DNA from: Odoribacter sp. | Lineage (GTDB): Bacteria > Bacteroidota > Bacteroidia > Bacteroidales > Prolixibacteraceae | DNA length: 64,000 nucleotides | Direction: 5' to 3' | Assembly: GCA_013824715.1 (NCBI GenBank) | Contig: PNOH01000003.1 | Coordinates: 116,121 to 180,120 of the forward strand | In this document: positions 22,370 to 34,824 of the stretch, piece by piece | How the letters are laid out: each line of letters opens with the position of its first letter | Position numbering within the stretch: position 1 is the first letter of the stretch | Translations under genes and position numbers: made by a program | Notes under the pieces: model-generated | Databases searched by the model: none | What the model saw: only the letters and a program-made list of their open reading frames with translations | What the model was told of the DNA's origin: nothing

Positions 22370-22442
22370 TGCGGGGTGGAGCAGTTGGTAGCTCGTTGGG
22401 CTCATAACCCAAAGGCCGTCAGTTCGAGTCTGGCCCCCGCTA
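22370..22442 (+). tRNA. Initiator tRNA-fMet (CAT anticodon)
   Basis: A full cloverleaf can be drawn. The acceptor pairs at 2-7:66-71 are GCGGGG/CCCCGC, the D-stem is GAGC/GCTC, the anticodon stem is TTGGG/CCCAA around CTCATAA, and the T-stem is GTCAG/CTGGC around TTCGAGT. Three features mark it as initiator rather than elongator: positions 1 and 72 (T and T) do not pair, the anticodon stem has three consecutive G:C pairs, and the 11:24 pair is A:T. CCA is not encoded. The 3' end is the integration target of the elements that follow. Confidence 0.95.
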
Positions 22443-22443
22443 C
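22428..22443 (+). repeat. attL: tRNA 3'-end copy of the integration core
   Basis: The 16-base GTCTGGCCCCCGCTAC is repeated exactly at 33489-33504, and its last 13 bases again at 32458-32470. Here it is part of the tRNA T-stem and acceptor stem. These direct repeats mark the ends of two integrated elements. Confidence 0.85.
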
Positions 22444-22456
22444 TTTTTAAATTTCA

Positions 22457-22498
22457 AAAGCCTGTAAGTTAACAACTTACAGGCTTTGTTGTTTTTAA
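22457..22498 (+). terminator. tRNA terminator supplied by element A
   Basis: A perfect 14-bp stem (22457-22470 with 22474-22487) has a 3-base loop and is followed by a GTTGTTTTTAATT tract. It lies 15 bases after the tRNA and inside the element, so it replaces the host terminator that was displaced to 33510. Confidence 0.85.
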
Positions 22499-22544
22499 TT
22501 GGAAACATATTGGAAATATCTTCACTTTTCACTCAAATCCTTTT

Positions 22545-22883
22545 TTACTTTTTGTTGATCACCTTTTGCGGGTTTTTCGTTGGACGTGCGTTCTGTCTCT
22601 GAAAAATCAGACTCAATTGAGCAATGGATTCCGGTGTAAGCATGGCTGCAAAATTCTCTTTACTGTATGGAAAAGTTTTATTTTCTATACTACAGCCTTC
22701 CAAAATTCCGGAATAGAGTAAGGAAATAAATGTTCCGGGCTTCATTTTTTCAAATTCCTCAAACTGGCCAAAGGCCATCCCTTCAGACTCCATACAAGAG
22801 CATAAAGCATTCCAGTTGAATTCAACGCGATATTGCGTTCGACCAACTTGTATGGAGTCATATTTTCTTCGCCAGATGCTCAT
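22545..22883 (-). CDS. Small phage tail-assembly-chaperone-like protein (downstream copy)
   Basis: 112 residues. It opens with IQVGRTQYRVEFNWNAL and continues with a helical region containing PGTFISLLYSGILEGCS and ESIAQLSLIF. The layout (short beta start, then a phi-N-x-x-phi and an LLYxGILEGC-type helix) resembles small tail-tube assembly chaperones. The gene at 24680-24994 has the same layout, so the two may be relatives on either side of the tape measure gene. The ATG overlaps the tape measure stop (TAATG), suggesting coupled translation. The function is inferred from position and layout only. Confidence 0.5.
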   Translation of the reverse strand: MSIWRRKYDSIQVGRTQYRVEFNWNALCSCMESEGMAFGQFEEFEKMKPGTFISLLYSGILEGCSIENKTFPYSKENFAAMLTPESIAQLSLIFQRQNARPTKNPQKVINKK

Positions 22884-24676
22884 TATGTTGAAATTTTTTT
22901 GATGGTTGATTCTTTCTCAATTACAGCAACCAAATCCCGCCCCTGTTGGCGGAACGTTCCTGTGATATTTATTGTCATTGGCGCTAATCTGTATGAGTTG
23001 ACCCCGGCACTACTTACCCCAATAGATGAGTTATTTCCACTGCCCGCGCTGGAAAATGTGCCGCCGCCTCCAGAAGCTGCACTTGCAACGGAAGTTTTAA
23101 AAGCTGTACCTATTGCAACAAGAGCAATACCAGCTGCAATGGCAGCAATGGCAGCCCCAGGAGTGGCAATCCCGGCTTTAAACATTAAAGACATTGCTAA
23201 AAATGCGGTCCCGGCGCCAATAGTAGCTTTTCCTATCGTTAGAAGCAGATCGCCAAAGGCAGATCCCAAAATTTCACCAATGCCTTTAGCCCCGTCTGCA
23301 CCAGCTAAAAGTAACCCCAGATTTTCACCGAAAGAAACAGCAAGATTATTCATGGCGGCTTCAATTGCTCCACCAATATCGATGCTTGTTGTTTTAAGAT
23401 CACCTAAAATTGATTTTACTTTATTGGCTGAAGCTTCTAGTTTATCAGTTTCGAGTCCTTCAGATAAAACCTTCGACCACTTCTCGTTTCCCTTTTCATC
23501 TGTTATTAACTTCCATTCAGTTTTTATTGAATTATCAACCGGCTTCAATGCTGTTAATCCTTTCGAATCAGCTTTTTCCTGTTCGATTTTTTTAATAATA
23601 GCTTCGTCAACCTTATTATTGTTTTCCTCAATTGATTTGGTAAGAGTGTTATATTCCCTTGTCATTCCACGAATTGTCGCTAATCCAGCTGCATCGATTT
23701 GATTAAGCTTCGCACGGGATTCGGCCAGGGCACGGGTTTCATCATCCATTTTGTTACCCATTTCATATTGCTTTTTTTGAATCTGTACCCGTTCTTTTTG
23801 GAGTGCAAATTCATCTGCTGTCATCTGTTTTTGTATGGAAATAGCTTCAGATAAAGCAGCTAGACGTTCCTTTTCTGATAATTCAAGGTCTTTAGCTTTC
23901 AGTCTTAATTCCTCAATACTTTGGCTGCGTTTGCCCTGTATTTCTATCAGGGCTATTTCTTTATCTTCAAGGGCTTGCAGGGCTTTGGTATTATCCCAGG
24001 CTTGTTTTGATTCTTTGGCAATTTCAGAACCTAAACCCGAAACCGATTTTTTCAAAGCTTCCCAGCCAGCGCCGAATTTTCCAGTGAATATTAAAAACAA
24101 TCCTTCACCAAATACAGACAACCGATCTATCAGCACATTGAAAATAGCCTTGAACGAAGCCATCACCTTCTCAACGCCTTCTGCTCCACGTTCGGTCTTT
24201 GTAAAATATGAAACTAACGAACCAAGTGCAACGATTAATAATCCAATACCAGTTGATGCTATTGCCAATTTCAGAACTTTCCATGCTGCTGAATGTTTCA
24301 ACGTAGCACTGGCGGCGGCCGTTTGTGCGGTTGCCGCCGCGGTAGTGGCTGTGGCTTCAGCTGCTGTTGCTGCGGTTAATCCTTCACTTGCAGTGGTTGC
24401 TGTTAGTTTTGCTTTACCTAAGTTGCTCACATCCTCAGTTGCTTTGAAAGCTCCTTTGAAACCTTCCCATAAAAACGTAAATGCTTTCTGAAATGCTTTC
24501 ATTTTTTCGCTGACTGCATCCAGGTTAATCCCAAACACAGCGGCAAATGAGGACAAAGAACTTTTTGCCTCATTTGAGAAGTTATCAACGGCGGCTTTAC
24601 CGCTTTCCATGTCTTTACGGAAATTCTTTGTTTCCGCTCCGAACCGAACCTTTAGATTTGTTGTTGTGTCGCCCAT
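22883..24676 (-). CDS. Phage tail tape measure-like protein
   Basis: 597 residues. It begins with the typical tape-measure opening (TTNLKVRFGAETKNFRKDMESGKAAVDNF), then a long Ala/Thr-rich helical stretch (about 90-130), a hydrophobic segment (about 137-160), a Lys/Glu-rich coiled coil (about 240-390) and a glycine/alanine-rich hydrophobic region (about 450-540). In phages such proteins set tail length and are threaded through the tail tube. It is short for the family. No tail tube, baseplate or fibre genes follow before the tRNA, so the cluster is truncated or specialised. Confidence 0.75.
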   Translation of the reverse strand: MGDTTTNLKVRFGAETKNFRKDMESGKAAVDNFSNEAKSSLSSFAAVFGINLDAVSEKMKAFQKAFTFLWEGFKGAFKATEDVSNLGKAKLTATTASEGLTAATAAEATATTAAATAQTAAASATLKHSAAWKVLKLAIASTGIGLLIVALGSLVSYFTKTERGAEGVEKVMASFKAIFNVLIDRLSVFGEGLFLIFTGKFGAGWEALKKSVSGLGSEIAKESKQAWDNTKALQALEDKEIALIEIQGKRSQSIEELRLKAKDLELSEKERLAALSEAISIQKQMTADEFALQKERVQIQKKQYEMGNKMDDETRALAESRAKLNQIDAAGLATIRGMTREYNTLTKSIEENNNKVDEAIIKKIEQEKADSKGLTALKPVDNSIKTEWKLITDEKGNEKWSKVLSEGLETDKLEASANKVKSILGDLKTTSIDIGGAIEAAMNNLAVSFGENLGLLLAGADGAKGIGEILGSAFGDLLLTIGKATIGAGTAFLAMSLMFKAGIATPGAAIAAIAAGIALVAIGTAFKTSVASAASGGGGTFSSAGSGNNSSIGVSSAGVNSYRLAPMTINITGTFRQQGRDLVAVIEKESTIKKIST

Positions 24677-24679
24677 GAT

Positions 24680-24994
24680 TTAATTCCCTTCAACTTTAGG
24701 TAACTTCATCATATTCACACTTATAGACTCTATAAGCAAAGAGAGCGTGTCGGTATCCAGTTGGCCTATTCGGTAAACATCAAAAGGACATTCAATTTTC
24801 TTTATACGGCAATATTCCTCACAACCCAGAAAAACCAGATCAAGTATATGCCTTAACGACATATGGCTCAACCGGGTGAAATCTTCAACGGTAAGGCCGT
24901 GCCGGTCGCTAAATTTGGCCATTGTGTTCATATTATAGACTGGAGTATAAGTTACCCCGTCAATTACTACTGAAATTTGTTTATTCTTTTCCAT
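24680..24994 (-). CDS. Small phage tail-assembly-chaperone-like protein (upstream copy)
   Basis: 104 residues, immediately upstream of the tape measure gene, the normal place for a tail assembly chaperone. It opens with ISVVIDGVTYTPVYNMNTMAKF, followed by helical LRHILDLVFLGCEEYC and SLLIESIS. It shares its layout with the 112-residue protein on the other side of the tape measure gene. No programmed frameshift site was evident. The assignment is from position and layout; confidence is moderate. Confidence 0.5.
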   Translation of the reverse strand: MEKNKQISVVIDGVTYTPVYNMNTMAKFSDRHGLTVEDFTRLSHMSLRHILDLVFLGCEEYCRIKKIECPFDVYRIGQLDTDTLSLLIESISVNMMKLPKVEGN

Positions 24995-25018
24995 GATGAT
25001 AAATGTTAAATTAATTAA

Positions 25019-25354
25019 TCATTCAAATACTTTTTCGGCTGTGATTTCCATAAATCGCCGATGTTGATCTGGTGTTATTGATGTGATATTGTACTCTGAA
25101 GAATCCCACAAAATACGGAAAGTGGTGTTCACCCCAGAATCGTAATGTCCCGCAATGGATAGAGTGCCGGGCAGATTCATTCTTTCGCCCTCTTTTTTCT
25201 CAGAATTTCCCCGCTGGGTAATACTTACCAACGCTTTACGGTAGTCGGTCCATGTTTCTTTAACCTGACCTTTTGAAGATTTATCGCGATGCGGTTGACG
25301 AAACATGATGAGTTCATTAAAATCGCTTAAACTAATTTCATTTTTCTTTGCCAT
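25019..25354 (-). CDS. Phage head-tail joining/adaptor-like protein
   Basis: 111 residues from the ATG at 25354; a TTG two codons upstream is less likely. It has the short beta-rich pattern of head-tail adaptors (gp16-type stoppers): ELIMFRQPHRDKSSKGQVKETW, an R-x-N-x-P-G-T segment and a C-terminal YNITSITPDQHRRFMEITAEKV. The last element (S-I-T/R-x-P-D-x-x-x-R-F-M-E-I) is characteristic of that family. In phages it closes the head after packaging. Its presence without portal, capsid or terminase genes shows the module is incomplete. Confidence 0.6.
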   Translation of the reverse strand: MAKKNEISLSDFNELIMFRQPHRDKSSKGQVKETWTDYRKALVSITQRGNSEKKEGERMNLPGTLSIAGHYDSGVNTTFRILWDSSEYNITSITPDQHRRFMEITAEKVFE

Positions 25355-25743
25355 ACTCAAAATATTATTGTTTTATACACTAATAATAAACCTGATTTAA
25401 TTCCTTAATTTTGCATGCGTTTACAGATAGTTAGGGTAGTGGTCTCACGTATATTTGATGTAGAGATTTTACCCCCCCCTACCCCCCATAAGATTCTAAC
25501 CACATGAAAAATATTTTTATTACTACTTATTGATTGCTATCTCTCTGACTTATACCCTATACCTTGAATTTTGACACGTGTATAAAGTTTTTAGGCTAGT
25601 AGTCGAGCTTACATTTTACACTTTAACCGCCCTTATCTTTAACCATTTTTAAGGTATAATTTTTCATTTTTTACTCTTTTGTTTAAATGTTTGTGTATTT
25701 ACAGCATACACAAACCATTAAATAGATTATTATTCTTTTTTAG
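25355..25743. other. Non-coding gap between tail module and recombinase
   Basis: No convincing gene on either strand. It holds a run of eight C, TA, then six C (25472-25487), which reads as a G-rich tract on the strand transcribed into the tail genes. There is a plus-strand TATATTTG (25450-25457) that would fit a -7 promoter box but has no gene to serve, and a 10-7-10 palindrome near the recombinase stop. Otherwise it is AT-rich. Confidence 0.6.
25689..25715. repeat. 10-bp palindrome with 7-base spacer beside the recombinase gene
   Basis: GTTTGTGTAT, spacer ttacagc, ATACACAAAC: perfect 10-base arms around a 7-base centre. It lies 28 bases beyond the stop codon of the tyrosine recombinase. 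No T-tract follows on either strand, so it is a poor terminator. The geometry matches a tyrosine-recombinase core site (two inverted arms around a 6-8 base crossover region). Confidence 0.5.
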
Positions 25744-26712
25744 TCAATTCAGGCTGGTTTTTGTCTGTTTTTCGAGTGCAACATCTATTGCGCTTACAGC
25801 CGGGTTCTGATAGAACGATTCAGCCTCAAATGCACTTAAATATATTTGTGTTGTGTCTGTGGAAGAGTGGCCTAACATTTTTTGAACTTCATAAATTGAA
25901 GCTCCGGCACGCAAAGCCATAACTGCACTTGTATGTCTCAAAGAATGTCCAGTAAACTTAGGATCATCAATCCCAATAGTGCGCAAAGATTTTTTTATAA
26001 GACTTGATATATAGTCGATATTAAGCCGCTCGTTAGTGTTGTATTTCGAATGATTTATGAGTACCGGCGAATCTGGGTTCTTCGCGTTATCACAAAGCAA
26101 TATATATTCATAAAGTGGATCGGTTGCCTTATCCGAAATTCCAATTATCTGATCTTTGAACTGGTGACCTTTACGCATGATTTTCATACTCCAGTGAGCA
26201 CCTTCACATATCAAATCCCCAACATTCAAACGGTGTAATTCGCACCGGCGCACACCTGTACGAAGCATGAAGTTTACAATACACCAGTCGCGCATTTCGG
26301 AAATTGTGTCTTTTGGCATTGCTTTTAAAAGCTCAATAACCTGGTCGGTTGATAATATACCTTTTTGAAAGCCTTTGTACTTTTTAGGACTATGAACACC
26401 TGAAGCAATATTTACAAATTCACCTTGATATACTTCCCTGTAAATCCGGTTTGTAGCAAGCCATCCGTAAAACATACGAACAGCACACAAATAACCATCA
26501 ATAGTAGTGCTGGTCATTTCTTTAGCTAAGAGGTAGGCCTTATAGTTAATTACGTCTGCTTTGCGCGGTTCGCGTACATTAACCTTTTTTATTCCCAAAT
26601 AAAGAAACCATTGATCTAGCTTTTTTTCGTAATTGTATCGGGTTTGAGGCTTAACATCAAGGTCGGACAGATATTGAGAAACAAGTTGATTAATGCTTTT
26701 ATCGGTTTGCAT
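25744..26712 (-). CDS. Second tyrosine recombinase (XerC/D-like)
   Basis: 322 residues. An N-terminal SAM-like DNA-binding domain (about 5-95, SINQLVSQYLSDL...) is followed by a catalytic domain with all landmarks: R in MLRTGVRRCELHRL, HSLRHTSAVMAL (H-x-x-R), LGHSSTDTTQIYL (H and the tyrosine nucleophile). It is shorter than the element integrase at 30855-32300 and of a different type. One base separates its start from the stop of the pseudo-RimK gene, so the two are one transcriptional and probably translational unit. A XerH-like role in resolving or inverting a site (perhaps the palindrome at 25689) is inference. Confidence 0.88.
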   Translation of the reverse strand: MQTDKSINQLVSQYLSDLDVKPQTRYNYEKKLDQWFLYLGIKKVNVREPRKADVINYKAYLLAKEMTSTTIDGYLCAVRMFYGWLATNRIYREVYQGEFVNIASGVHSPKKYKGFQKGILSTDQVIELLKAMPKDTISEMRDWCIVNFMLRTGVRRCELHRLNVGDLICEGAHWSMKIMRKGHQFKDQIIGISDKATDPLYEYILLCDNAKNPDSPVLINHSKYNTNERLNIDYISSLIKKSLRTIGIDDPKFTGHSLRHTSAVMALRAGASIYEVQKMLGHSSTDTTQIYLSAFEAESFYQNPAVSAIDVALEKQTKTSLN

Positions 26713-26713
26713 T

Positions 26714-27955
26714 TTACAGTTTCATTAAATTTAGGGCTCGCAGTTCGTCAATTGTATTTCGGATAAGTTCTGAAATTTCCATGTTTTCAGACATATTTAC
26801 TGAGGTTCGGCGACCTGTTAAGCTTTCACGATTCGTTATAAGAATTCTTTTCGCAGCGTTATGTAGGTTCTTAATTGATTCGGATAGTATTTCAGATCGT
26901 AACTGAGTCAAATTCTCAGAAGCTCCAATTTTTCTAACCTGATCAACTTCCCATTTCGGATTTTTGCGCCGTTGCTTAATTGTTTCAATAACATGTTTAA
27001 TGAGTGCAGCGGAAATATTTTCACCGGTGGCATTTTCGGCGGCTTCAATATCCGGCTTTCCTGAAATTGAAATAATTGTTGATCCAAGGCCATTCATGTC
27101 ACGGACAAGTGTAATTTCAGCAAAATCTAAGTACAGCAATCGGGCGGCACGACCTACAACCCGTTTTTCATGTGAATCAAGTTCTATCGGCGCTGTTATC
27201 CCATCGAGTGAGTTTTTATTCTTGTAATCAAATGGAACGGTTACAGAATAAGCGATTATTTCAGACTTAGGAGTATACCCATCGAAAACAATTGCTTTTA
27301 TGTATTCAGTCTTTTCATGTGCAGTACGAATGAACGGACTGAGTATAATTTCAGATTCTAAATCGTTCACTGACTTCAAAAGACAAACCGCTGATTCGTC
27401 ATTTTCAATTAAAACATCAGCATATTTTTTGCCGCGTTTTGTAACTGTACATTTCAGCGGATAGCCTCCGGCCAAGTCAATCGTTTGTCTCAAATCAGCC
27501 GGACCATTTATCAGTAATTTGCTAGAAATTGGCATATCTTTTTCCGTCCGGTCTTTTATTATCAGTTGAGATGCTTTAAATTCATTCAGGCAGTTTTCAA
27601 GAGCATACGCTGAAGCGGGTGAATAAATATTTTGAAGTTGGAATTGCCTCACTACGTTAAGTCCATAATGTCCGGCGCGGTCAGAGTCCAGGATCGGAAT
27701 AATAGCATCAAACTGAGGGATAAGATCCCTTAACTGATTGGCGGTGATTTCTTCGCCTTCAGAAGCAAATCGTTTGTAAGCTTTCAGGGTAATATCATTT
27801 CGTTGGATTTTCAGTATAATATCCAATGGATTGATAACCGTTGCGCTAATTTCTGTTTCAGCTCCTGCGGCTTCGTTTGCTTTTGCAATTTCTTCGAGCA
27901 GCCTCTCCTCATTAAAAATAGACAGAATGAGAATGTTGATTTTGTCTTTTGCCAC
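26714..27955 (-). CDS. RimK-like ATP-grasp-fold protein with degenerate active site
   Basis: 413 residues. Residues 1-328 align along their whole length with the ribosomal S6 modification enzyme RimK: FDAIIPILDSDRAGHYGLNVVRQF (RimK FDAVIPRIG...YGTAALRQF), TIDLAGGYPL (LIDMVGGAPL), KRVVGRAARLLYLDFAEITLV ([21 protein letters not shown]), ATGENIS (TTGIDIA). The catalytic positions are lost: the ATP lysine after GGYPL is T170, the glycine-rich EGTQGIG is KRGKKYA, and the metal-binding MEVNASPG is ISISGKPD (E to S296, N to S298). About 85 extra helical residues, rich in charge, form the C-terminus. It is probably a binding protein derived from RimK, not a ligase. The recognition is by recalled sequence, not a search. 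Confidence 0.72.
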   Translation of the reverse strand: MAKDKINILILSIFNEERLLEEIAKANEAAGAETEISATVINPLDIILKIQRNDITLKAYKRFASEGEEITANQLRDLIPQFDAIIPILDSDRAGHYGLNVVRQFQLQNIYSPASAYALENCLNEFKASQLIIKDRTEKDMPISSKLLINGPADLRQTIDLAGGYPLKCTVTKRGKKYADVLIENDESAVCLLKSVNDLESEIILSPFIRTAHEKTEYIKAIVFDGYTPKSEIIAYSVTVPFDYKNKNSLDGITAPIELDSHEKRVVGRAARLLYLDFAEITLVRDMNGLGSTIISISGKPDIEAAENATGENISAALIKHVIETIKQRRKNPKWEVDQVRKIGASENLTQLRSEILSESIKNLHNAAKRILITNRESLTGRRTSVNMSENMEISELIRNTIDELRALNLMKL

Positions 27956-27972
27956 AACTTTAAATTTATATG

Positions 27973-28110
27973 TTAAAAATTAAACTTTCCATTTTTGATT
28001 CCTTCAAACTTGATCGTTATCCCAGTCAGTTTTGTTTGTATGCCCGGAAATTTGGTTTTGATACCTTGAAATTTTAAAGGCTTGGGCGGCTTTATTCTTT
28101 TAGCATTCAC
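27973..28110 (-). CDS. 45-residue micro-protein made of four heptad repeats
   Basis: GTG start at 28110, overlapping the end of the DUF6291 gene by 11 bases; the stop lies 17 bases before the pseudo-RimK start. After a basic leader (VNAKRIKPPKPLK) come four consecutive 7-residue units at 14-41: FQGIKTK, FPGIQTK, LTGITIK, FEGIKNG, then KFNF. The unit is (F/L)-x-G-I-x-(T/N/I)-(K/G). The DNA of the four units differs at many third positions while the pattern is kept, which argues for a translated and selected peptide. There is one acidic residue against many lysines. The function is unknown. It lies between the genes of a compact operon. Confidence 0.5.
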   Translation of the reverse strand: MNAKRIKPPKPLKFQGIKTKFPGIQTKLTGITIKFEGIKNGKFNF

Positions 28111-28855
28111 CGGCTAGTATTTTTTTTCGTAAAATATCGGCAGCCGACGACTTGAACGGTGATTGTTCGTCGTGGCTTTGCTTCGTAGTTGAAAGTAGTT
28201 TTGCAGTCCAGTTTTCCTGATTCCAGCCTCCGTCGAGATAACGGTTTTCGATGTGTCCTAAAAAGTTAGGGAAGGCATGTTTGGCAGTGGTCGATTTTTC
28301 TTTGTATGCTTTGTATGCTTCAAACTGCTCGGTAAACATTTCAATTTTTCCGTCAGTTTTTAGCAGGTTCAGGAAAGTAGCAATCTGTTGTAATTTGTCG
28401 GGGTTGCGCATTTCGGTAAAACCAAAATATTCAAGAATTGAAAAATGAAGTTCTGAATCTGAAAACATACAAATACTTTTTTCATTTTCATTTTCAGATA
28501 CATTAACATTAACATCATCAGATTCATTTTCATTAAGGTTACCAAAAATCCCAGTGGGTTTTTTAAAAATATCTGGGTTATTAATTAACCCGCTGGGTTT
28601 TTTGGGTTCTTTTGGCCGTCCTCCTTTTAATCCATTTGTTTGGTTTCTCTCAATAATGTTTTGATATTTTTCTGAATCCCTTTTAAAGTGAGCTTTTATG
28701 AAGTTAAACGCCATTTGAACAACTGGTGGAAGTTCGCGGACTTTAGAACCTGTTTGATATTGGAAAATAGCATCTAAAAGCATTCCCTTTTCTCCATCTG
28801 AAAGACCCTGGACAGGAGGATAAAATGAATTATATACAATGAAACTATCTTTCAT
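28100..28855 (-). CDS. DUF6291-domain protein of phage/element type
   Basis: 251 residues. The N-terminal 90 residues (DSFIVYNSFYPPVQGLSDGEKGMLLDAIF, then VQMAFNFIKAHFKRDSEKYQNIIERNQTNGLKGGRPKEPKKP) are the DUF6291 pattern common in Bacteroidota prophages and integrative elements. A low-complexity Asn/Glu/Val-rich stretch follows (about 105-130), and a C-terminal helical part resembles replication-accessory proteins (FTEQFEAYKAYKEKS...FPNFLGHIENRYLDGGWNQENW). A replication role is plausible by analogy but not shown. It lies 6 bases after the preceding small gene. Confidence 0.75.
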   Translation of the reverse strand: MKDSFIVYNSFYPPVQGLSDGEKGMLLDAIFQYQTGSKVRELPPVVQMAFNFIKAHFKRDSEKYQNIIERNQTNGLKGGRPKEPKKPSGLINNPDIFKKPTGIFGNLNENESDDVNVNVSENENEKSICMFSDSELHFSILEYFGFTEMRNPDKLQQIATFLNLLKTDGKIEMFTEQFEAYKAYKEKSTTAKHAFPNFLGHIENRYLDGGWNQENWTAKLLSTTKQSHDEQSPFKSSAADILRKKILAGEC

Positions 28856-28861
28856 AAGTTG

Positions 28862-29056
28862 TTAATATTCTAGTTGACACTTAGTATTAAGTCGTTCGGC
28901 CTTTAGCTTTATCTCTGAAAATTTCCCCTGGTCAATTATTGAAATTGCGGTAGTTTCATCGGCACTTTTTTTACTAAAATTTGTAGCACTTTCCATACTA
29001 TATGTATTTAGTATGCAGTCGAAAAGAAGTAAGTAAATAGGGATTTTTTGCGACAT
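28862..29056 (-). CDS. Small hypothetical protein in the element early operon
   Basis: 64 residues, unrecognised. It starts with a short hydrophobic stretch (IPIYLLLFDCIL) followed by a polar region (KKSADETTAISIIDQGKFSEIKLKAERLN). It fits exactly between the HTH gene (2-base gap) and the DUF6291 gene (6-base gap) on the same strand, which supports it being real despite its size. Confidence 0.45.
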   Translation of the reverse strand: MSQKIPIYLLLFDCILNTYSMESATNFSKKSADETTAISIIDQGKFSEIKLKAERLNTKCQLEY

Positions 29057-29058
29057 GG

Positions 29059-29385
29059 CTAAGCCCTCCGTTTAAGATTAATTACATTAAAGGATAATAA
29101 ATCAGATTTCCGGAAGTAGATTTTATTGCTGATCCGAATGTATGGCAGCAAGCCGCGTTTTTTCCACTGGTGTATTGAAACTAAACTTTTTTTAAAAAAG
29201 GCAGCGGTTTCTTTAAGGGTGAGAAGCTCATCATCATTTTGAGAATGTTGATTCTCAATTGTGCCGGTAAGTTTCTGAATAATGTTTGTTTCGATTTCTT
29301 TTCCGAACTGCAAAAGGGCATCGGCTGAAATGACTAATTGAACATTTTGCCCGGCTAAATTCTGAATGCTGAAAGGTTGCCCCAT
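29059..29385 (-). CDS. Excisionase-like helix-turn-helix protein (second of two)
   Basis: 108 residues. The C-terminal half (about 50-100) is a MerR-like/HTH_17 DNA-binding domain: LLTLKETAAFFKKSLVSIHQWKKRGLLPYIRISNKIYFRKSDLL. The N-terminal half is helical and may dimerise. Such proteins act as excisionases or as regulators of integrase direction in Bacteroidota elements. It follows the first HTH gene with 1 base between stop and start. Confidence 0.75.
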   Translation of the reverse strand: MGQPFSIQNLAGQNVQLVISADALLQFGKEIETNIIQKLTGTIENQHSQNDDELLTLKETAAFFKKSLVSIHQWKKRGLLPYIRISNKIYFRKSDLLSFNVINLKRRA

Positions 29386-29386
29386 G

Positions 29387-29674
29387 TTATTTACCTCCCT
29401 CGTTTAGTTCTTTCAATGCCTGATCAACCTCACTCCAACGAAATAAAATCCTTCCACCTATGCGATAGGCTTTAATTTCTTGATTTTTAATAAGGCGGTC
29501 GAGCGTTCCGATTGTAATGTGAAGGGCTTCGGACACTTCGTGGCGGGTGGCATATTGAGGCCGTGCGATCTTTAATTTCTTTTGAAATTCGCCGATCAAG
29601 TTTTGATTTATCTCTCGGATTTCTGAAAGAAAATCTTTTTTGTTTAATGTTATTTCAAGATGTTCCATAAGCAT
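29387..29674 (-). CDS. Excisionase-like helix-turn-helix protein (first of two)
   Basis: 95 residues. The winged-helix HTH_17 domain is in the C-terminal half (ATRHEVSEALHITIGTLDRLIKNQEIKAYRIGGRILFRWSEVDQAL, about 45-90), the form used by Xis-type proteins of conjugative transposons. A Met two codons in (29668) is an alternative start. It is the first gene after the 260-base regulatory gap, hence likely the first gene of the rightmost-to-left early operon. Confidence 0.78.
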   Translation of the reverse strand: MLMEHLEITLNKKDFLSEIREINQNLIGEFQKKLKIARPQYATRHEVSEALHITIGTLDRLIKNQEIKAYRIGGRILFRWSEVDQALKELNEGGK

Positions 29675-29876
29675 TTATAGTCTTTTATAATGTTTATTTC
29701 ACAAGAATAAAAAACTAAAATGCAGATTGACACCAAAAAAAGTGTATTTATTTTATAATAATTAATTTGATCATAAAAGCGTGTACGAATGAAGTTTAGA
29801 AAATTTTAAAATTTGAACAATATTGGATTGTGTTCGAAATAATTAAATGCTTTTTAAGTTCTGTTAAGGATGTGCA

Positions 29877-29920
29877 ATCCAATAAAAAATAAAAAACGGC
29901 TCAATTTTTAAGTTGAGCCG
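29877..29920 (-). terminator. Intrinsic terminator after the integrase operon of element A
   Basis: On the minus strand the arms CGGCTCAA and TTGAGCCG (29897-29920) with an 8-base loop are followed by TTTTTTATTTTTTATT. It lies 17 bases beyond the stop of the 95-residue gene, ending the integrase transcript. The remaining bases up to 29675 are AT-rich and must contain the promoter of the HTH operon. Confidence 0.8.
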
Positions 29921-29937
29921 TTGAAATTTTCAAGTTG

Positions 29938-30225
29938 TTAATTAGTACTCCCAATCGTTAATTTATATAAGTGCTCGAATAATTTTGAAAAGTTGGCACA
30001 TGATAATCTGTTTTGAATTTCAACTGCAAATTCTAATTTGGCTGGACTTCTATTTAAAAAGGAATCAATGTCTGAAATCGTATCGAGAACACTAAATCTT
30101 TCATAATCAAATTTAAAGTCGGCTAAATAATTTCTAAATTCATTCATTTCAGTGTGAAAAATTCCAGCCTCAAGAAAAGGGTAAACAGATAATGTCTGTT
30201 CAATTGTCTCTGTAAAGTTTTTCAT
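29938..30225 (-). CDS. Hypothetical protein of element A
   Basis: 95 residues, unrecognised. Predominantly helical with many aromatic residues (EAGIFHTEMNEFRNYLADFKFDYERF, then DSFLNRSPAKLEFAVEIQNRL and a C-terminal FEHLYKLTIGS). No signal or membrane segment. It is last in the integrase operon, 5 bases after the previous gene and just before the terminator. Confidence 0.6.
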   Translation of the reverse strand: MKNFTETIEQTLSVYPFLEAGIFHTEMNEFRNYLADFKFDYERFSVLDTISDIDSFLNRSPAKLEFAVEIQNRLSCANFSKLFEHLYKLTIGSTN

Positions 30226-30230
30226 CAGAC

Positions 30231-30488
30231 TTACCTTACCACAGTTAAATAATTTGGTTTGAATCTATCTGAGCGAAAAGCCTCGGAGTGAACTTGGGAT
30301 AGACAAACACTACATTCTTTTTTACCAAAATATGGAGTTGTTCCATCTAATATCAATAACTCCACACCACATTTACACCTCGTAATTTCTTTGATTGTGT
30401 AAACTTTGTTCTTTTCTATTCCGTAAGGATAGTGAGTTAAAGTGCCATTCGCATCTTTACAAACAACTTTTTGACAACTTTTAAACAT
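30231..30488 (-). CDS. Small cysteine-rich (zinc-ribbon-like) phage-type protein
   Basis: 85 residues with VCKDANG, a KNKVYTIKEITRCKCGVELLILDG core and KECSVCL, giving two C-x-C or C-x-x-C pairs that could bind zinc, and a C-terminal RFKPNYL. Small proteins of this plan (KVVC...VYTIxEI...C...L.LxG...RFxP) are common in Bacteroidota phages and elements; their function is not known to me. It is in the integrase operon. Confidence 0.62.
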   Translation of the reverse strand: MFKSCQKVVCKDANGTLTHYPYGIEKNKVYTIKEITRCKCGVELLILDGTTPYFGKKECSVCLSQVHSEAFRSDRFKPNYLTVVR

Positions 30489-30551
30489 AATTTGGATTTT
30501 TATAAAACTTGTTTTAGAAATTGAGTTTCAGCATCGGTTTTTAAAGGTGCG

Positions 30552-30842
30552 TCACTCATGGCTTTGATTTTTATAAAAATCAAGATTTTTGATATTGTTT
30601 CTTTGCTCACAAATGAATGAAATTGTACAGGCTAATGAATTAGCCTTAATTGCATTATTCTCAAGTGAATCTTCCAGACGGTCATTCAATAACGTCGTTA
30701 TGGAATCACTCAAATCTTTTATAAACAAGTCGTCTCCAGTACATAACATTCTGGTTTGATTAATGATTTTCTGTTCAACATCTTTAATTTCGGCTAAGTT
30801 TTCAGGCTTCATTTCGATTGTTTTTGCTGTTGATGTGTTCAT
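30552..30842 (-). CDS. Hypothetical helical protein downstream of the integrase
   Basis: 96 residues, unrecognised. Almost entirely polar helix (KPENLAEIKDVEQKIINQTRML, LSDSITTLLNDRLEDSLENNAIKANSLACTISFICEQRNN). It starts 12 bases after the integrase stop on the same strand. It could be a small regulator, but nothing in the sequence says so. Confidence 0.55.
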   Translation of the reverse strand: MNTSTAKTIEMKPENLAEIKDVEQKIINQTRMLCTGDDLFIKDLSDSITTLLNDRLEDSLENNAIKANSLACTISFICEQRNNIKNLDFYKNQSHE

Positions 30843-30854
30843 TTTGTTTGAATT

Positions 30855-32300
30855 TTAAGGTTTATAACTTTGAGTTTGTTGCATTGCTGTTTTATAGGCT
30901 TCTCTATCCTTGAAAATATATTTTTGAAGTACTTCAAGCTTTGTGTGTCCGGTAATCTGCATAACGATCGGAAGCGGTAAATGCTCGTAATTCAGAAGGA
31001 TTGATACACATGTCCGGCGGGCAGAATGACTTGATAAAAACTTATGCTTTGGGGCTTCCCTTGTTACTTCGCGGTTACCCAGCGGGCGGATTGATTTAAC
31101 AGGCGAATTGATTTCGGCATCTTCAGCAGCCAGTTTGATATAATCATTGAATTTTTGTTGAGAAATTTCAGGAAGCTTAAAATTGTATTTCTTCAAAATA
31201 TCAAGCGCTGGGGCCGCAAACCCCACAAAGTATATTTTAATGTCTTTTTTTGTTTTGAACGAGCGAAATTTCCAGCAGTCTCCAGAAACATCTGAAGGGT
31301 TAAAAGCTTCAACGTCACTCCATCGCTGTCCGGTGAAGGCGGCAAAACAAAACAGGTCGCGTACATGATCGAGCCGCTCGTCGTTGGAAAAATCATGGGT
31401 GTAAAGTGCTTTTAACTCATCGGGGTTAAGTGCCACAACGTCAATATCAGTGTTCCGGCTGATCCTGAAATCAGCAGGAAGCATGATCGAATGTTTGATA
31501 CGCTTTTGACTCCAGCCTACAAAAGTCCGGATAGTTGCAATGTATTTTTCAATCGTATCGTTAAGTAATCCGATTTGCTGACCATCTGGCCGGTTTTTTT
31601 GTCTTCCTCTGGCCGGTTGTGTGCGAAGATGTCGCAAATACTTATCGAGAAAATTAAGGTCAAGATCGGCGAAATTCAAGCCATATTTATAATGCTTATT
31701 TGAGAATTCGGTCAATGATTTTTTAACCGTCTCGTATTTTTGAATAGTTCGATGTGTCTGTGTGGTTTTTTTATCTTCAATAAATTCATTAAAAATTGCA
31801 AAGAATCTATTTTCTGATTTGCCTGGAATTGGAAGATCATTTGACATTGCTTTCGTTAGTCGATCGAAAAACTCTGCAAAGCTTAAACCGGGGCTTTCGG
31901 CTATTATACGGGAATATTGTTTCAAGGCCGTTTCCTTCATTTGTTTCAATCGCTCATTAATTTCCAAATGTCCAATCATGGTCCGCTTTACTTGCTGTTT
32001 GCCAAAATCCCAATGGATTGGATAAATCGCGTATTCTGTTTTGATTTTAACCATGTGGGTACGGTCGATAATCAGGAACAAATAAATTCGGGTTTCCTTC
32101 TTATTCAGATATGGAATAAGGTCTTTTTCTTGCTTTGTACCAGCTTTAATTTCAATCTTTCGTGCTTTAATTTCATCCTGAATCAGTTTATTTTCTTCCT
32201 TTGCAAGTGACAAATCTGGGTTTTCTGATTTTCTGTAAGGATTTTGAAGGGAAAGCGAAAGACCAGCCATTTGTATTACCTTTAAAATGTGATGTTTCAA
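30855..32300 (-). CDS. Integrase of element A (tyrosine recombinase, Bacteroidota type)
   Basis: 481 residues. An arm-binding/SAM-like N-terminal half (about 50-290) starts with the IKAGTKQEKDLIPYL/ETRIYLFLIIDR region. The catalytic half has FAAFTGQRWSDVEAF (R), FLSSHSARRTCVSILL (H-x-x-R), ITGHTKLEVLQKYIF (H and the tyrosine). This is the long form typical of Bacteroidota integrative elements. It lies 157 bases from the right-hand attachment copy, the usual position for an integrase, so it probably directed insertion into the tRNA-fMet gene. The catalytic residues are intact. Confidence 0.92.
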   Translation of the reverse strand: MKHHILKVIQMAGLSLSLQNPYRKSENPDLSLAKEENKLIQDEIKARKIEIKAGTKQEKDLIPYLNKKETRIYLFLIIDRTHMVKIKTEYAIYPIHWDFGKQQVKRTMIGHLEINERLKQMKETALKQYSRIIAESPGLSFAEFFDRLTKAMSNDLPIPGKSENRFFAIFNEFIEDKKTTQTHRTIQKYETVKKSLTEFSNKHYKYGLNFADLDLNFLDKYLRHLRTQPARGRQKNRPDGQQIGLLNDTIEKYIATIRTFVGWSQKRIKHSIMLPADFRISRNTDIDVVALNPDELKALYTHDFSNDERLDHVRDLFCFAAFTGQRWSDVEAFNPSDVSGDCWKFRSFKTKKDIKIYFVGFAAPALDILKKYNFKLPEISQQKFNDYIKLAAEDAEINSPVKSIRPLGNREVTREAPKHKFLSSHSARRTCVSILLNYEHLPLPIVMQITGHTKLEVLQKYIFKDREAYKTAMQQTQSYKP

Positions 32301-32457
32301 AGATAATAAATTGGAAACAAATTGGAAGCAAATTCTTTAATTATCTTTATTTATCTTTATTCAACTTAATAGACAATGCCTTAAATCCCTTTATTTATAA
32401 GCATTTAAGTAGAATATGCAACAAATAAAATTAACAAAGTTATGATATTGCGAAGCG

Positions 32458-32470
32458 TGGCCCCCGCTAC
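32458..32470 (+). repeat. Middle attachment copy between elements A and B
   Basis: TGGCCCCCGCTAC, 13 bases identical to the tRNA 3' end; the three bases before it (gcg) differ from the tRNA (GTC). It marks the right end of element A and the left end of element B, and it sets the minimum crossover identity for element A. Confidence 0.8.
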
Positions 32471-32472
32471 AG

Positions 32473-32516
32473 AAGCTTTAAATATCTAAATATTAGACAT
32501 TTAAAGCTTTTTTATT
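32473..32516 (+). terminator. tRNA terminator supplied by element B
   Basis: An 11-bp perfect stem (32473-32483 with 32499-32509) continues after one mismatch with 5 more pairs, and is followed by TTTTTATTTT. It has the same position relative to the att copy as the hairpins at 22457 and 33510, but an unrelated sequence. Confidence 0.8.
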
Positions 32517-32675
32517 TTAATAAGTGCGTCATGGCTGCGCTATTACTGCGTCAAGAATCCAATTCTTTTAGAAAATACCAATAGGCTAAGTGCTTGATTA
32601 TTAGACGCTAAAATCTGTGGTTGATTATTGACATATTTGTCACCAATTTTGAGTATCTTGTTAAGAAAATTATTT

Positions 32676-33335
32676 ATGGAATATTTTCTTAATTTTTATA
32701 CTGGCTTTGCTGCACTACTGGGGCTAATATATAGTAGTCCTTGGGGAAGAAAGTATTTTGTCAAAAAGAGTTTTCTAAAGAAGCATATAAAGAAAATGGA
32801 TTTTGCTGTCTTGGCAATTTCAATAATTGTAATAGTACTTGGAGTTGTTGATAATTATAATAAAGAAGAATATCAAGGTGTAAATATTGTACCAACTTAT
32901 AGTATCGTTCCAGGAGGCGCATCTCAAGAGTATTCAGTTGTTGTCACGAATAATTGTCCCTACCCTGTATTTAATTTAACAGTTTTTGCCCGAGTAAAAG
33001 AAGGTAATCTTAATATGGAGAATTGCCAGCTTGTACCTGAAAAAACGCCTGAAAAAGGAAATTCAGACATACCAATAATATTTTTGGGGTTGTCTGGACC
33101 AAGATTTCAATCTCTTATGATTAAGGAAATTGAGGCTAGATCCTCCTATAAAATAATAATGAAAATTCGAGCAGATAAACTGAAAGGTATTTCGAAAATT
33201 GGTTATGATGTCACTTACCATAAGGAACCATTTCCTATAATTTCTTTTCCAATTAAGCCAAACAAGGATGGTAAATATGAATTACCGAAAACCTTTAAAT
33301 TACCTGATGGTTTTGAAAAAATCATACCAAAATGA
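32676..33335 (+). CDS. Hypothetical membrane protein, only gene of element B
   Basis: 219 residues from the ATG at 32676; a TTG at 32628 would add 16 residues. There are two hydrophobic segments (about 5-20 and 44-62) separated by a basic loop (GRKYFVKKSFLKKHIKKMD), then a soluble beta-rich domain of about 150 residues (GGASQEYSVVVTNNCPYPVFNLTVFARVKEGN...). That domain looks like an immunoglobulin-like or CARDB-like fold. No family was recognised. It is the only plus-strand gene in the whole inserted region and is AT-rich. As lone cargo of a small element, a phage-exclusion or defence role is conceivable, but nothing shows it. Confidence 0.7.
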   Translation: MEYFLNFYTGFAALLGLIYSSPWGRKYFVKKSFLKKHIKKMDFAVLAISIIVIVLGVVDNYNKEEYQGVNIVPTYSIVPGGASQEYSVVVTNNCPYPVFNLTVFARVKEGNLNMENCQLVPEKTPEKGNSDIPIIFLGLSGPRFQSLMIKEIEARSSYKIIMKIRADKLKGISKIGYDVTYHKEPFPIISFPIKPNKDGKYELPKTFKLPDGFEKIIPK

Positions 33336-33488
33336 TAAATGAAACTTAATATTCTCAAAAATGGAATATGTTGTGTTTAATTCTACTGCGCAACAATTGC
33401 GCCGGTTCTGCGCCCAAAGTGGTTCAAAAACGCCCATTACGAACTATTTAAATATTTTATAATGAGTATAGTAAAAAATGATTGGAAG

Positions 33489-33504
33489 GTCTGGCCCCCG
33501 CTAC
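33489..33504 (+). repeat. attR: right copy of the tRNA 3' end
   Basis: GTCTGGCCCCCGCTAC, identical to 22428-22443. Host sequence resumes after it, with a terminator hairpin that must originally have served the tRNA gene. Confidence 0.85.
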
Positions 33505-33509
33505 TCAGG

Positions 33510-33540
33510 AAGCTCTGGCATTTATGCCCGAGCTTTTTTT
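33510..33540 (+). terminator. Original host terminator of the tRNA-fMet gene, displaced 11 kb
   Basis: Stem AAGCTCTGGCA with TGCCCGAGCTT (10 of 11 paired, 4-base loop), then seven T. It begins 6 bases after the attR core. Confidence 0.8.
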
Positions 33541-33547
33541 ATGCATT

Positions 33548-34495
33548 CTATTTCGGAGATATCATGCTGAATCTTTTCTGAATCAATTCCATATACATCA
33601 CCTTGAAATCGTCGCTTAGAAAACTGATGTCAATGAATTCCATCCATTTATCCTTTGCCCGCTCCATCTTCTTAAAGATGTTCTCTTGTTGTTTTGTGTC
33701 CAATTTTAAGGTGTTAAAGGCGGCAACAAAATCATTGTGGTGTATTTTCTTTTTTTTGCTATTGAGCGTTAATGCCAGATCTTCATCATCGGCTGGATTG
33801 ACAAGAGTTGTGGCTACCATATCATAAGCAGGAGAAAGAATCGTCCCTGTACCGGGTTTTCGGATCAGTGAGAAATTCTTTAGATGCATATCGGCATTTC
33901 CTGTCAGAAAGGAAAAAAGTACCTGCTCAAAGAAATTCACCACATCTAATCCCGGATTGGTTGAATATTTCAAAATGGTTTTGGCTATTTGTTCGTATGA
34001 CCCGTGATACTTATCTTCCGTTAATTTTTCAGTTAACTGGCACATGTCTTCCATGTGAATCTTTACGCTTTTGTTGCGGTCAATTCGTTTCGTTATATAA
34101 GCCAGTTTACCTGACTTCAACCGAATTAAACTATGAGGTACCACTTCAATTTTAGCAATACTTGCCAAATGCATGGTAAGGTCTTCCACTTCCGGAAGAT
34201 GAGCATATTGTTGGGTAGGAGGCTTTAAGATATAACCGCCCCATAATCCTACAATAGTAAAACGTTTGGGTTCATTCTTATTTTGACCCGGGGAAACATC
34301 CAACGAAATCTTCGGCTGAACTCCGGTGACCGACACCTGACTTCGGATAATCTGTAAAGCCAGATCTTTCATTTGGGTTTCAGTATAGGGCAATTCCGGT
34401 GGTGTAGGATGGCCAAAGATTTTCTTACTACAGGCAGCATGAAAATCCACTTCATTATTAGCTAAAAGCTGATAGCAATACAAACATCTACTCAT
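33548..34495 (-). CDS. hipT: HipT-like Ser/Thr kinase toxin of a tripartite HipBST system
   Basis: 315 residues. A short N-terminal C-x-x-C...H-x-x-x-C motif (MSRCLYCYQLL...FHAACSKK) may bind zinc. The HipA-type kinase core has the phosphate loop SVTGVQPKISL, catalytic FLTGNADMHLKNFSLI and metal-binding LSPAYDMVAT. The serine/threonine just before GVQPK (S-V-T) is at the place of the regulatory autophosphorylation motif of HipT. The separate HipA N-terminal subdomain is encoded by the upstream gene, as in HipBST. Relatives phosphorylate aminoacyl-tRNA synthetases and stop translation. Start and the previous stop overlap (ATGA). The catalytic residues are intact, so it is likely functional. 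Confidence 0.85.
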   Translation of the reverse strand: MSRCLYCYQLLANNEVDFHAACSKKIFGHPTPPELPYTETQMKDLALQIIRSQVSVTGVQPKISLDVSPGQNKNEPKRFTIVGLWGGYILKPPTQQYAHLPEVEDLTMHLASIAKIEVVPHSLIRLKSGKLAYITKRIDRNKSVKIHMEDMCQLTEKLTEDKYHGSYEQIAKTILKYSTNPGLDVVNFFEQVLFSFLTGNADMHLKNFSLIRKPGTGTILSPAYDMVATTLVNPADDEDLALTLNSKKKKIHHNDFVAAFNTLKLDTKQQENIFKKMERAKDKWMEFIDISFLSDDFKVMYMELIQKRFSMISPK

Positions 34496-34824
34496 AACTG
34501 ATCCTCCTCTTTCGCAGGATGAACACTAACCGCACCGATACAATCCTTACAACAGGCCAGCAACAACCCCATCCGGTCGCGCGGATTCAGTTTCCAGTTC
34601 CTTTGAGCAATATCGAGCAACCAACCTTCGGGAATCAGGCCATCAAAAAATGGAAACAACATTTTACTGTTAAAGATTTTTTCCTGTAATGGAAATGTCA
34701 GACTGACAGGCTCTACATCGGACATATTCAGATAACTTGTATCATAAATAAAATGATACCCGTTTTCGTCCTGAGAAAGCCAACCGGCAAGTCTATCATG
34801 CATTCTTATTTCAGCCCTTCTCAT
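34492..34824 (-). CDS. hipS: HipS-like protein (free HipA N-terminal subdomain)
   Basis: 110 residues corresponding only to the N-subdomain 1 of HipA: MRRAEIRMHDRLAGWL, then EPVSLTFPL and FPFFDGLIPEGWLLDIAQRNWKL. In the HipBST arrangement this separate piece is the antitoxin that masks the kinase. It overlaps hipB by 14 bases and hipT by 4, so the three are translated as a chain. Both overlaps and its own start show it is a designed split, not a frameshifted HipA. Confidence 0.82.
   Translation of the reverse strand: MRRAEIRMHDRLAGWLSQDENGYHFIYDTSYLNMSDVEPVSLTFPLQEKIFNSKMLFPFFDGLIPEGWLLDIAQRNWKLNPRDRMGLLLACCKDCIGAVSVHPAKEEDQL

What the first reader, a model, noticed from the sequence alone, without database searches (positions are those of the whole stretch)
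22370..33540. Tandem elements at the initiator tRNA, each bringing its own replacement terminator
Seen: three copies of the tRNA-fMet 3' end (22428-22443, 32458-32470, 33489-33504). Each is followed within 2-15 bases by a strong stem-loop and T-run on the plus strand, and the three hairpins (22457, 32473, 33510) have unrelated sequences. The simplest reading is that each element restores not only the tRNA 3' end but also a working terminator, while the original host terminator now lies 11 kb away at 33510. Carrying a tRNA terminator beside the attachment core would protect expression of an essential gene (the initiator tRNA) and could stop read-through into the element, whose genes all point towards the tRNA. 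Terminator carriage as a general trait of tRNA-targeting elements is something I do not recall as described.
Basis: partly seen in the sequence, partly recalled or inferred. Interest (0 to 1): 0.8.

Follow-up and report, generated by a model that had tools for sequence, protein, structure and literature searches.

The report
Insertion elements carrying replacement tRNA terminators
A roughly 10-kb prophage-like element sits in the end of the essential start-tRNA gene of a Bacteroidota bacterium and carries, beside its attachment site, a predicted transcription stop signal that likely replaces the host's own, which now lies 11 kb away; related elements share this layout, but it is not universal among elements that insert in tRNA genes.

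Summary
Three copies of the initiator-tRNA 3' end (13-16 nt) are each followed within 0-13 nt by a terminator-like hairpin. The outermost (33508-33537) is the genus's commonest type after this tRNA (11 of 20 other same-genus genomes); the 22457 hairpin is in none of 120 other stretches. So the element brought its hairpin and displaced the host's by 11 kb.

The hairpin lies between the crossover core and repeats that recur at the element's far end (likely integrase arm sites). Of fourteen Bacteroidota element ends, 14 carry a hairpin on the tRNA strand, 8 on the opposite strand, and 0 before the distal core (random windows: 26 of 2000). Stems of related elements covary. A Draconibacterium genome shows a second stacked pair.

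The "general trait" claim fails as written. Where the integrase gene lies next to the tRNA and reads away from it, 13 of 24 sites lack a terminator, including one at an initiator tRNA; of five E. coli K-12 elements one has it within 75 nt and a second 44 nt on. ICEKp1 is published to strip the terminator and use the tRNA promoter. Termination and protection of the tRNA are predicted, not shown.

The parts
22370..22443 (+). initiator tRNA-Met(cat) gene, 3' end restored by the element
   Evidence: ARAGORN
22431..22443 (+). attachment core copy 1 (tRNA 3' end)
22444..32470 (.). element A (10,027 bp), prophage-like, likely genes all on -
   Evidence: displaced core; ORFs; PHROGs
22457..22487 (+). 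element A terminator-like hairpin, 14-bp stem, T-rich tail to about 22497; also scores on - strand
22497..22520 (+). tandem repeat spaced 11 bp (TTGGAAACA, TTGGAAATA), likely P' arm-type integrase sites
32309..32332 (+). same repeat at the other end (AATTGGAAACA exact, second copy 1 mismatch), likely P arm-type sites
30855..32300 (-). tyrosine integrase (Phage_int_SAM_5, Phage_integrase, Arm-DNA-bind_5 just below cut-off) beside the distal core
29059..29385 (-). HTH_17 protein, weak match to excisionase family
29387..29674 (-). HTH_17 protein, weak match to excisionase family
25744..26712 (-). second tyrosine recombinase
25019..25360 (-). phage head-closure / head completion protein
24680..24994 (-). 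tail protein (weak match)
32458..32470 (+). attachment core copy 2, distal end of A and proximal end of B
32471..33504 (.). unit B (1,034 bp), no integrase, one ORF
32471..32511 (+). unit B terminator-like hairpin, scores on + strand only
32628..33335 (+). unit B ORF, no Pfam family above cut-off, no PHROG; one 34% relative in 140 family genomes
33492..33504 (+). attachment core copy 3 (16-nt identity 33489-33504)
33508..33537 (+). displaced host tRNA terminator (commonest genus type)

Best explanation
A prophage-like element occupies the 3' end of the initiator tRNA gene and carries, between its attachment core and its likely integrase arm sites, a hairpin predicted to be an intrinsic terminator, so each integration likely swaps the host's tRNA terminator for the element's own. 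Shown by sequence: the hairpin lies on the element's side of the core; the host-type hairpin is at the far end; related elements keep the order core, hairpin, repeat, with different but still paired stems. Inferred: the integrase recombines the 13-nt core; the repeats are its arm sites; RNA polymerase leaving the tRNA stops at the hairpin, which would keep tRNA transcription out of the element and the tRNA's 3' trailer short; where the element's genes converge, the same hairpin would also stop antisense transcripts from running into the tRNA. Successive elements stack at the tRNA, each bringing its own hairpin.
For: The 33508-33537 hairpin is of the type found after fMet in 11 of 20 other same-genus genomes, and none of the 20 has the 22457 hairpin, nor do 120 fetched stretches. 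14 of 14 element ends carry a tRNA-strand terminator, 0 of 14 just before the distal core; base rate 26 of 2000 windows. 9 of 14 share a word of 11 nt or more between the stretch beyond the hairpin and the stretch before the distal core, against 7 of 700 shuffles. Stem covariation in 8 of the 14: 8 of 13 pairs changed on both sides, 15 such cells against 5.4 in shuffles. Distal ends of three tRNA-Met elements in Draconibacterium share one host-type terminator. Second stacked pair in G435.
Against: No RNA data. 13 of 24 int-adjacent sites lack a terminator, so a tRNA with an occupied site can do without one. CP4-6 in E. coli has its integrase at the far end, as here, and has none within 200 nt. 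Five of the 14 ends, unit B among them, share no more than 10 nt between ends, within reach of chance. Most of the 14 ends come from one bacterial family and related integrases, so they are not independent.
Confidence: 0.75

Rival explanations
1. The hairpin is the ordinary end-of-operon terminator of the element's genes, which run towards the tRNA; it sits there by chance or for the element's own sake, and the tRNA gains nothing.
For: Element A's likely genes converge on the tRNA; the hairpin scores on the opposite strand too in 8 of 14 ends, A included.
Against: The tRNA-strand signal is present in 14 of 14, the opposite in 8 of 14, six discordant all one way, sign test 0.03. Units B, L124 and L235 begin with an ORF reading away from the tRNA and pass the threshold only on the tRNA strand. 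Not clean: L092 also reads away and passes on both; L167 and L240 converge and do not pass on the opposite strand.
Confidence: 0.2
2. The palindrome is a DNA site for a recombination protein in the P' arm, not a terminator.
For: It lies between the core and the repeats in the elements with recognisable repeats.
Against: Stem sequence varies while pairing is kept; a T-run follows on the tRNA strand; a dimer-binding site would be expected to keep its sequence.
Confidence: 0.08
3. The 22457 hairpin is host sequence or a diverged host terminator copied by earlier recombination.
For: Host terminators at fMet are diverse even within the genus; hairpin B shares its outer pairs with the host type.
Against: None of 120 other fMet stretches has it, and the repeat that recurs at the far end of A follows it directly.
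Confidence: 0.04

Closest known systems
ICEKp1, ICEclc, ICEEc1 (PMC13023037; passages incl. part of the abstract; section 20 in full)
   Same: Element in a tRNA 3' end that displaces the host's rho-independent terminator to its far end.
   Different: There the int gene lies next to the tRNA, reads the same way and is transcribed from the tRNA promoter; for ICEKp1, putting the terminator back abolished co-transcription and transfer. Stem-loops in its int leader attenuate the transcript. Here a terminator is carried and int is at the far end.
Islander-type tRNA genomic islands (PMC4383910; only the start of the abstract seen in the listing)
   Same: Regenerated tRNA at one end, displaced fragment at the other, tyrosine integrase.
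   Different: What I saw speaks of restoring the gene; a carried terminator is not mentioned there.
KplE1/CPS-53 at argW and its classes of integrase/tRNA orientation (PMC2951348; passages)
   Same: tRNA-gene integration; a framework of integrase/tRNA orientations.
   Different: int next to argW, co-directional, no terminator within 75 nt.
CP4-57 at ssrA in E. coli K-12
   Same: A strong hairpin with T-run lies 44 nt beyond ssrA on the element's side; DNA 96-98% identical to this stretch is in six Klebsiella phage records.
   Different: int adjacent and co-directional; other host and integrase.
Phage lambda tI terminator beyond attP (recalled; only a reference title seen)
   Same: A terminator in phage DNA near the attachment site.
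   Different: Its recalled role is control of int mRNA, not replacement of a tRNA terminator.

Membership tests
tRNA-targeting tyrosine-integrase island | intact tRNA at one end, displaced 3' fragment at the other | tested here: met
   (A and B)
tRNA-targeting tyrosine-integrase island | own tyrosine integrase | tested here: met
   element A; unit B has none
tRNA-targeting tyrosine-integrase island | excises as a circle | not testable with these tools
   needs reads or PCR across 32457/core/22444
complete prophage | full set of capsid, packaging and tail genes | tested here: not met
   in 13 ORFs of A scanned against PHROGs, only a head-closure protein, a weak tail match and a weak endolysin-type match to a long protein
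ICEKp1-type promoter-hijacking element | int next to the tRNA and co-directional | tested here: not met
   int at far end on - strand
ICEKp1-type promoter-hijacking element | no working tRNA terminator on the element side | tested here: not met
   by sequence only: hairpin 22457
intrinsic terminator | stem-loop followed by T-run on the tRNA strand | tested here: met
intrinsic terminator | RNA 3' ends at the T-run | not testable with these tools
   no RNA data held

The most novel reading that the evidence does not exclude
Elements that insert in tRNA genes follow one of two opposed transcriptional strategies set by what they place next to the tRNA: insulators, whose attP carries a terminator as a conserved module between core and arm sites (int at the far end), and hijackers, which strip the terminator so that the tRNA promoter drives int. 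Insulator elements repeatedly re-equip essential tRNA genes with foreign terminators, and stacked elements leave a record of terminators behind them.
Probability: 0.4. Interest if true: 0.65.

Novelty: new variant of a known kind. Interest (0 to 1): 0.5.

Why it matters
Restoring the tRNA body is the usual explanation of how elements use tRNA genes without harm; here, for one group, the repair extends to the terminator, as an inherited part of the attachment region. Set beside ICEKp1, it turns a vague question (what does a tRNA gene gain or lose on integration?) into a testable contrast between two architectures. For annotation, the hairpin just beyond a tRNA can tell which DNA is element and which is host.

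Tried and rejected
Universality of terminator carriage: rejected. A link between the direction of the first element gene and a two-way terminator: suggestive but with exceptions (L092, L167, L240), not claimed. Unit B: the only hit among 5.8 billion proteins is the window's own; one 34% relative in the family. A spaced pattern for displaced cores in ten genomes found only one genome's own tRNA. The IMG/VR scan with the integrase gave 7 loci, of which only L261 had a tRNA. E. coli leuX has a terminator, but I could not tell host from element. L090, L116 and L276 have element-like hairpins with no distal core found in what is held; L110 (G027) has a hairpin followed by a tandem repeat and may be another element. 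None of the four is among the 14.

Rows dropped before counts: tandem tRNA arrays L195, L211 and L234; the GIY-YIG cassettes (six sites plus the array at L123's fMet, where two tRNA-like copies lack a terminator), including the copy 1,106 nt on in L218; L033 and L240 are the same element (G031 = G437), counted once, L049 (integrase on the tRNA's 5' side) and the second tRNA of L315. L322 at -7.8 kcal/mol was counted as lacking a terminator, and its integrase start is 569 nt off. The scorer allows loops of at most 10, so some long-loop hairpins (L215) are missed. The all-tRNA scan ended with an error on a trailing marker line after the last sequence had been processed; it needed 14 identical nt. 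Covariation used 8 of the 14 ends; two of its rows (L235, L279) began one base early and L235 aligned poorly.
Full report
Setting. The window is G000:C3:116121-180120 of a 4.6-Mb, 85-contig assembly. The same-family genome G031 gives the same places as the record of Tangfeifania diversioriginum, which the taxonomy puts in Prolixibacteraceae, Bacteroidota; the window's family is therefore taken to be Prolixibacteraceae.

Observation. One tRNA, fMet at 22370-22443. The 13-nt core is exact at three places in the window and nowhere else in the assembly. Each copy is followed by a hairpin with a T-run: 22457-22487, 32471-32511 and 33508-33537 (the consensus scan itself lists only the first of the three).

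Which hairpin is host? One search covered 23 same-genus genomes, window included; 21 had the tRNA. In the 20 others the sequence after the tRNA is of the GCTCTGG..GCC type, with variants, in 11; of a GAAAGTCAGTG type in 5; and something else in 4. The window's outermost hairpin is the first type. The 22457 hairpin is in none of these 20 nor in any of the 120 stretches fetched later. So the host-type terminator is 11 kb away and 22457 came with the element.

Baseline and other elements. With the window that makes 121, and a terminator of -8 kcal/mol or better follows the tRNA in 111. Displaced cores over 1 kb away, GIY-YIG arrays apart, were in the window (two), L124 (9.5 kb) and L169 (6.0 kb). 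A scan of all tRNAs in 166 sequences over 3.5 kb added L123 (tRNA-Asn, 13 kb) and L167 (tRNA-Arg, 2.1 kb, HipA genes, no integrase). The genome-contig scan with the integrase gave 23 loci: L235 Draconibacterium mangrovi and L240 Tangfeifania show both ends. For L237, L238, L239 and L243 the tRNA side was sought.

Anatomy of the element end. In the 14 ends (WIN-A, WIN-B, L124, L169, L271, L273, L274, L235, L240, L279, L277, L283, L123, L167) a tRNA-strand terminator follows the core in 14 of 14, an opposite-strand one in 8 of 14, and none stands on the tRNA strand just before the distal core (0 of 14). Random 70-nt windows score 26 of 2000. Eleven of 14 share a word of at least 9 nt between the stretch after the hairpin and the stretch before the distal core, but shuffles reach 9 nt in 109 of 700; the firm figure is 11 nt or more, 9 of 14 against 7 of 700. 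Ends of different elements paired at random reach 11 nt in 9 of 182, partly because some elements share motifs. A tandem repeat 10-13 bp apart (8 of 9 nt alike or better) follows the hairpin in 9 of 14 ends, against 9 of 110 fMet sites with a terminator, which include WIN, L124 and L092. I read these repeats as arm-type integrase sites (inference). The hairpin is thus embedded in the element's attachment region. Eight hairpins align, with 8 of 13 pairs changed on both sides and 15 such cells against 5.4 in shuffles; slid controls are lower.

Stacking is repeated elsewhere. In G435 a tRNA-Met with one hairpin (L277, on another contig), a 44-nt tRNA fragment with a second (L283) and a distal core with the host type (L239) form the same series. 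The link between the two contigs rests on a 20-nt word shared by L277 and the flank of L283. The hairpin at the distal ends in D. mangrovi, D. sediminis and G435 is the same GGAGTC(A/T)GG type.

Limits of generality. I looked for tRNAs in 67 integrase loci: the 30 loci each returned (the best of many matches) and the 7; 24 had a tRNA or tmRNA. I kept 23 with the 3' end facing the start of a co-directional integrase gene and added L092: 11 of 24 have a terminator within 75 nt, 13 do not, and looking up to the integrase start adds none. One that lacks it is at an fMet gene (L308); another is at the tmRNA gene of the window's own genome (L305). Integrase at the far end: 10 of 10 have one (WIN-A, L124, L169, L271, L273, L274, L235, L240, L283, L123; integrases of L124, L169 and L123 supported by Pfam, that of L123 below the cut-off for Phage_integrase but above it for Phage_int_SAM_5). 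Fisher 0.005, but hosts and integrases are related, L274 is unproven, and the two groups come from different sets of families. In E. coli K-12, by the same 75-nt rule only leuX of five has a terminator; ssrA (end set from recall and its CCA) has a strong one 44 nt on that runs past 75 nt; argU has only a -9.4 candidate 52 nt on, inside intD; argW and thrW have nothing strong within 200 nt. thrW/CP4-6 has its integrase at the far end and still lacks one, against the simple rule.

Known work. [quoted passage not shown] a re-inserted terminator stopped co-transcription and transfer (PMC13023037; section 20; passages). Searches (58, 62 and 63 returned nothing) listed no paper that I could recognise as describing terminators carried in attP; of the papers listed I looked into PMC13023037, PMC2951348 and PMC4729917 only. 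The library holds open-licence papers, and the older literature on tRNA integration is largely outside it, so this is weak evidence of novelty.

What is shown and what is not. Shown: positions, types of hairpin, layout, covariation, counts. Inferred: terminator activity, arm sites, recombination at the core, benefit to tRNA or element. Element A is prophage-like, with a head-closure protein and weaker tail and endolysin-type matches, an integrase, a second tyrosine recombinase and two HTH proteins with weak excisionase matches. Unit B is 1,034 bp with one orphan ORF and no integrase, either a remnant or a passenger.

Noticed in passing
L104, L107, L178, L180, L218, L228 (just after tRNA-fMet): Units of about 340-380 bp made of tRNA 3' end, terminator and a small GIY-YIG nuclease ORF stand at the initiator tRNA, in up to three tandem units; five of five ORFs tested match PF01541 (the short L178 one was not tested). 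Core copies are followed by terminator-like hairpins, weak at the last copy of L218. A motif search found such ORFs after 7 of 117 fMet sites (it misses L228).
   Followed up: partly
L090, L116, L276: Element-like hairpins right after tRNA-Met genes with no displaced core found in the held sequence: possible relics of lost elements.
   Followed up: partly
G000:C50 (L305): The window's own genome has a tyrosine integrase next to the tmRNA gene with no strong terminator between them.
   Followed up: partly
L167:15514-17571: A 2-kb unit with HipA genes and no integrase sits in a tRNA-Arg 3' end with a 13-nt word shared by both ends: looks like a cassette moved by another element's integrase.
   Followed up: partly
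window 25744-27955: Second tyrosine recombinase next to a RimK-like ATP-grasp gene inside element A; the pairing is unexplained.
   Followed up: no
window 33548-34824: HipA-like gene pair (Couple_hipA and HipA_C) directly beyond the displaced host terminator.
   Followed up: no
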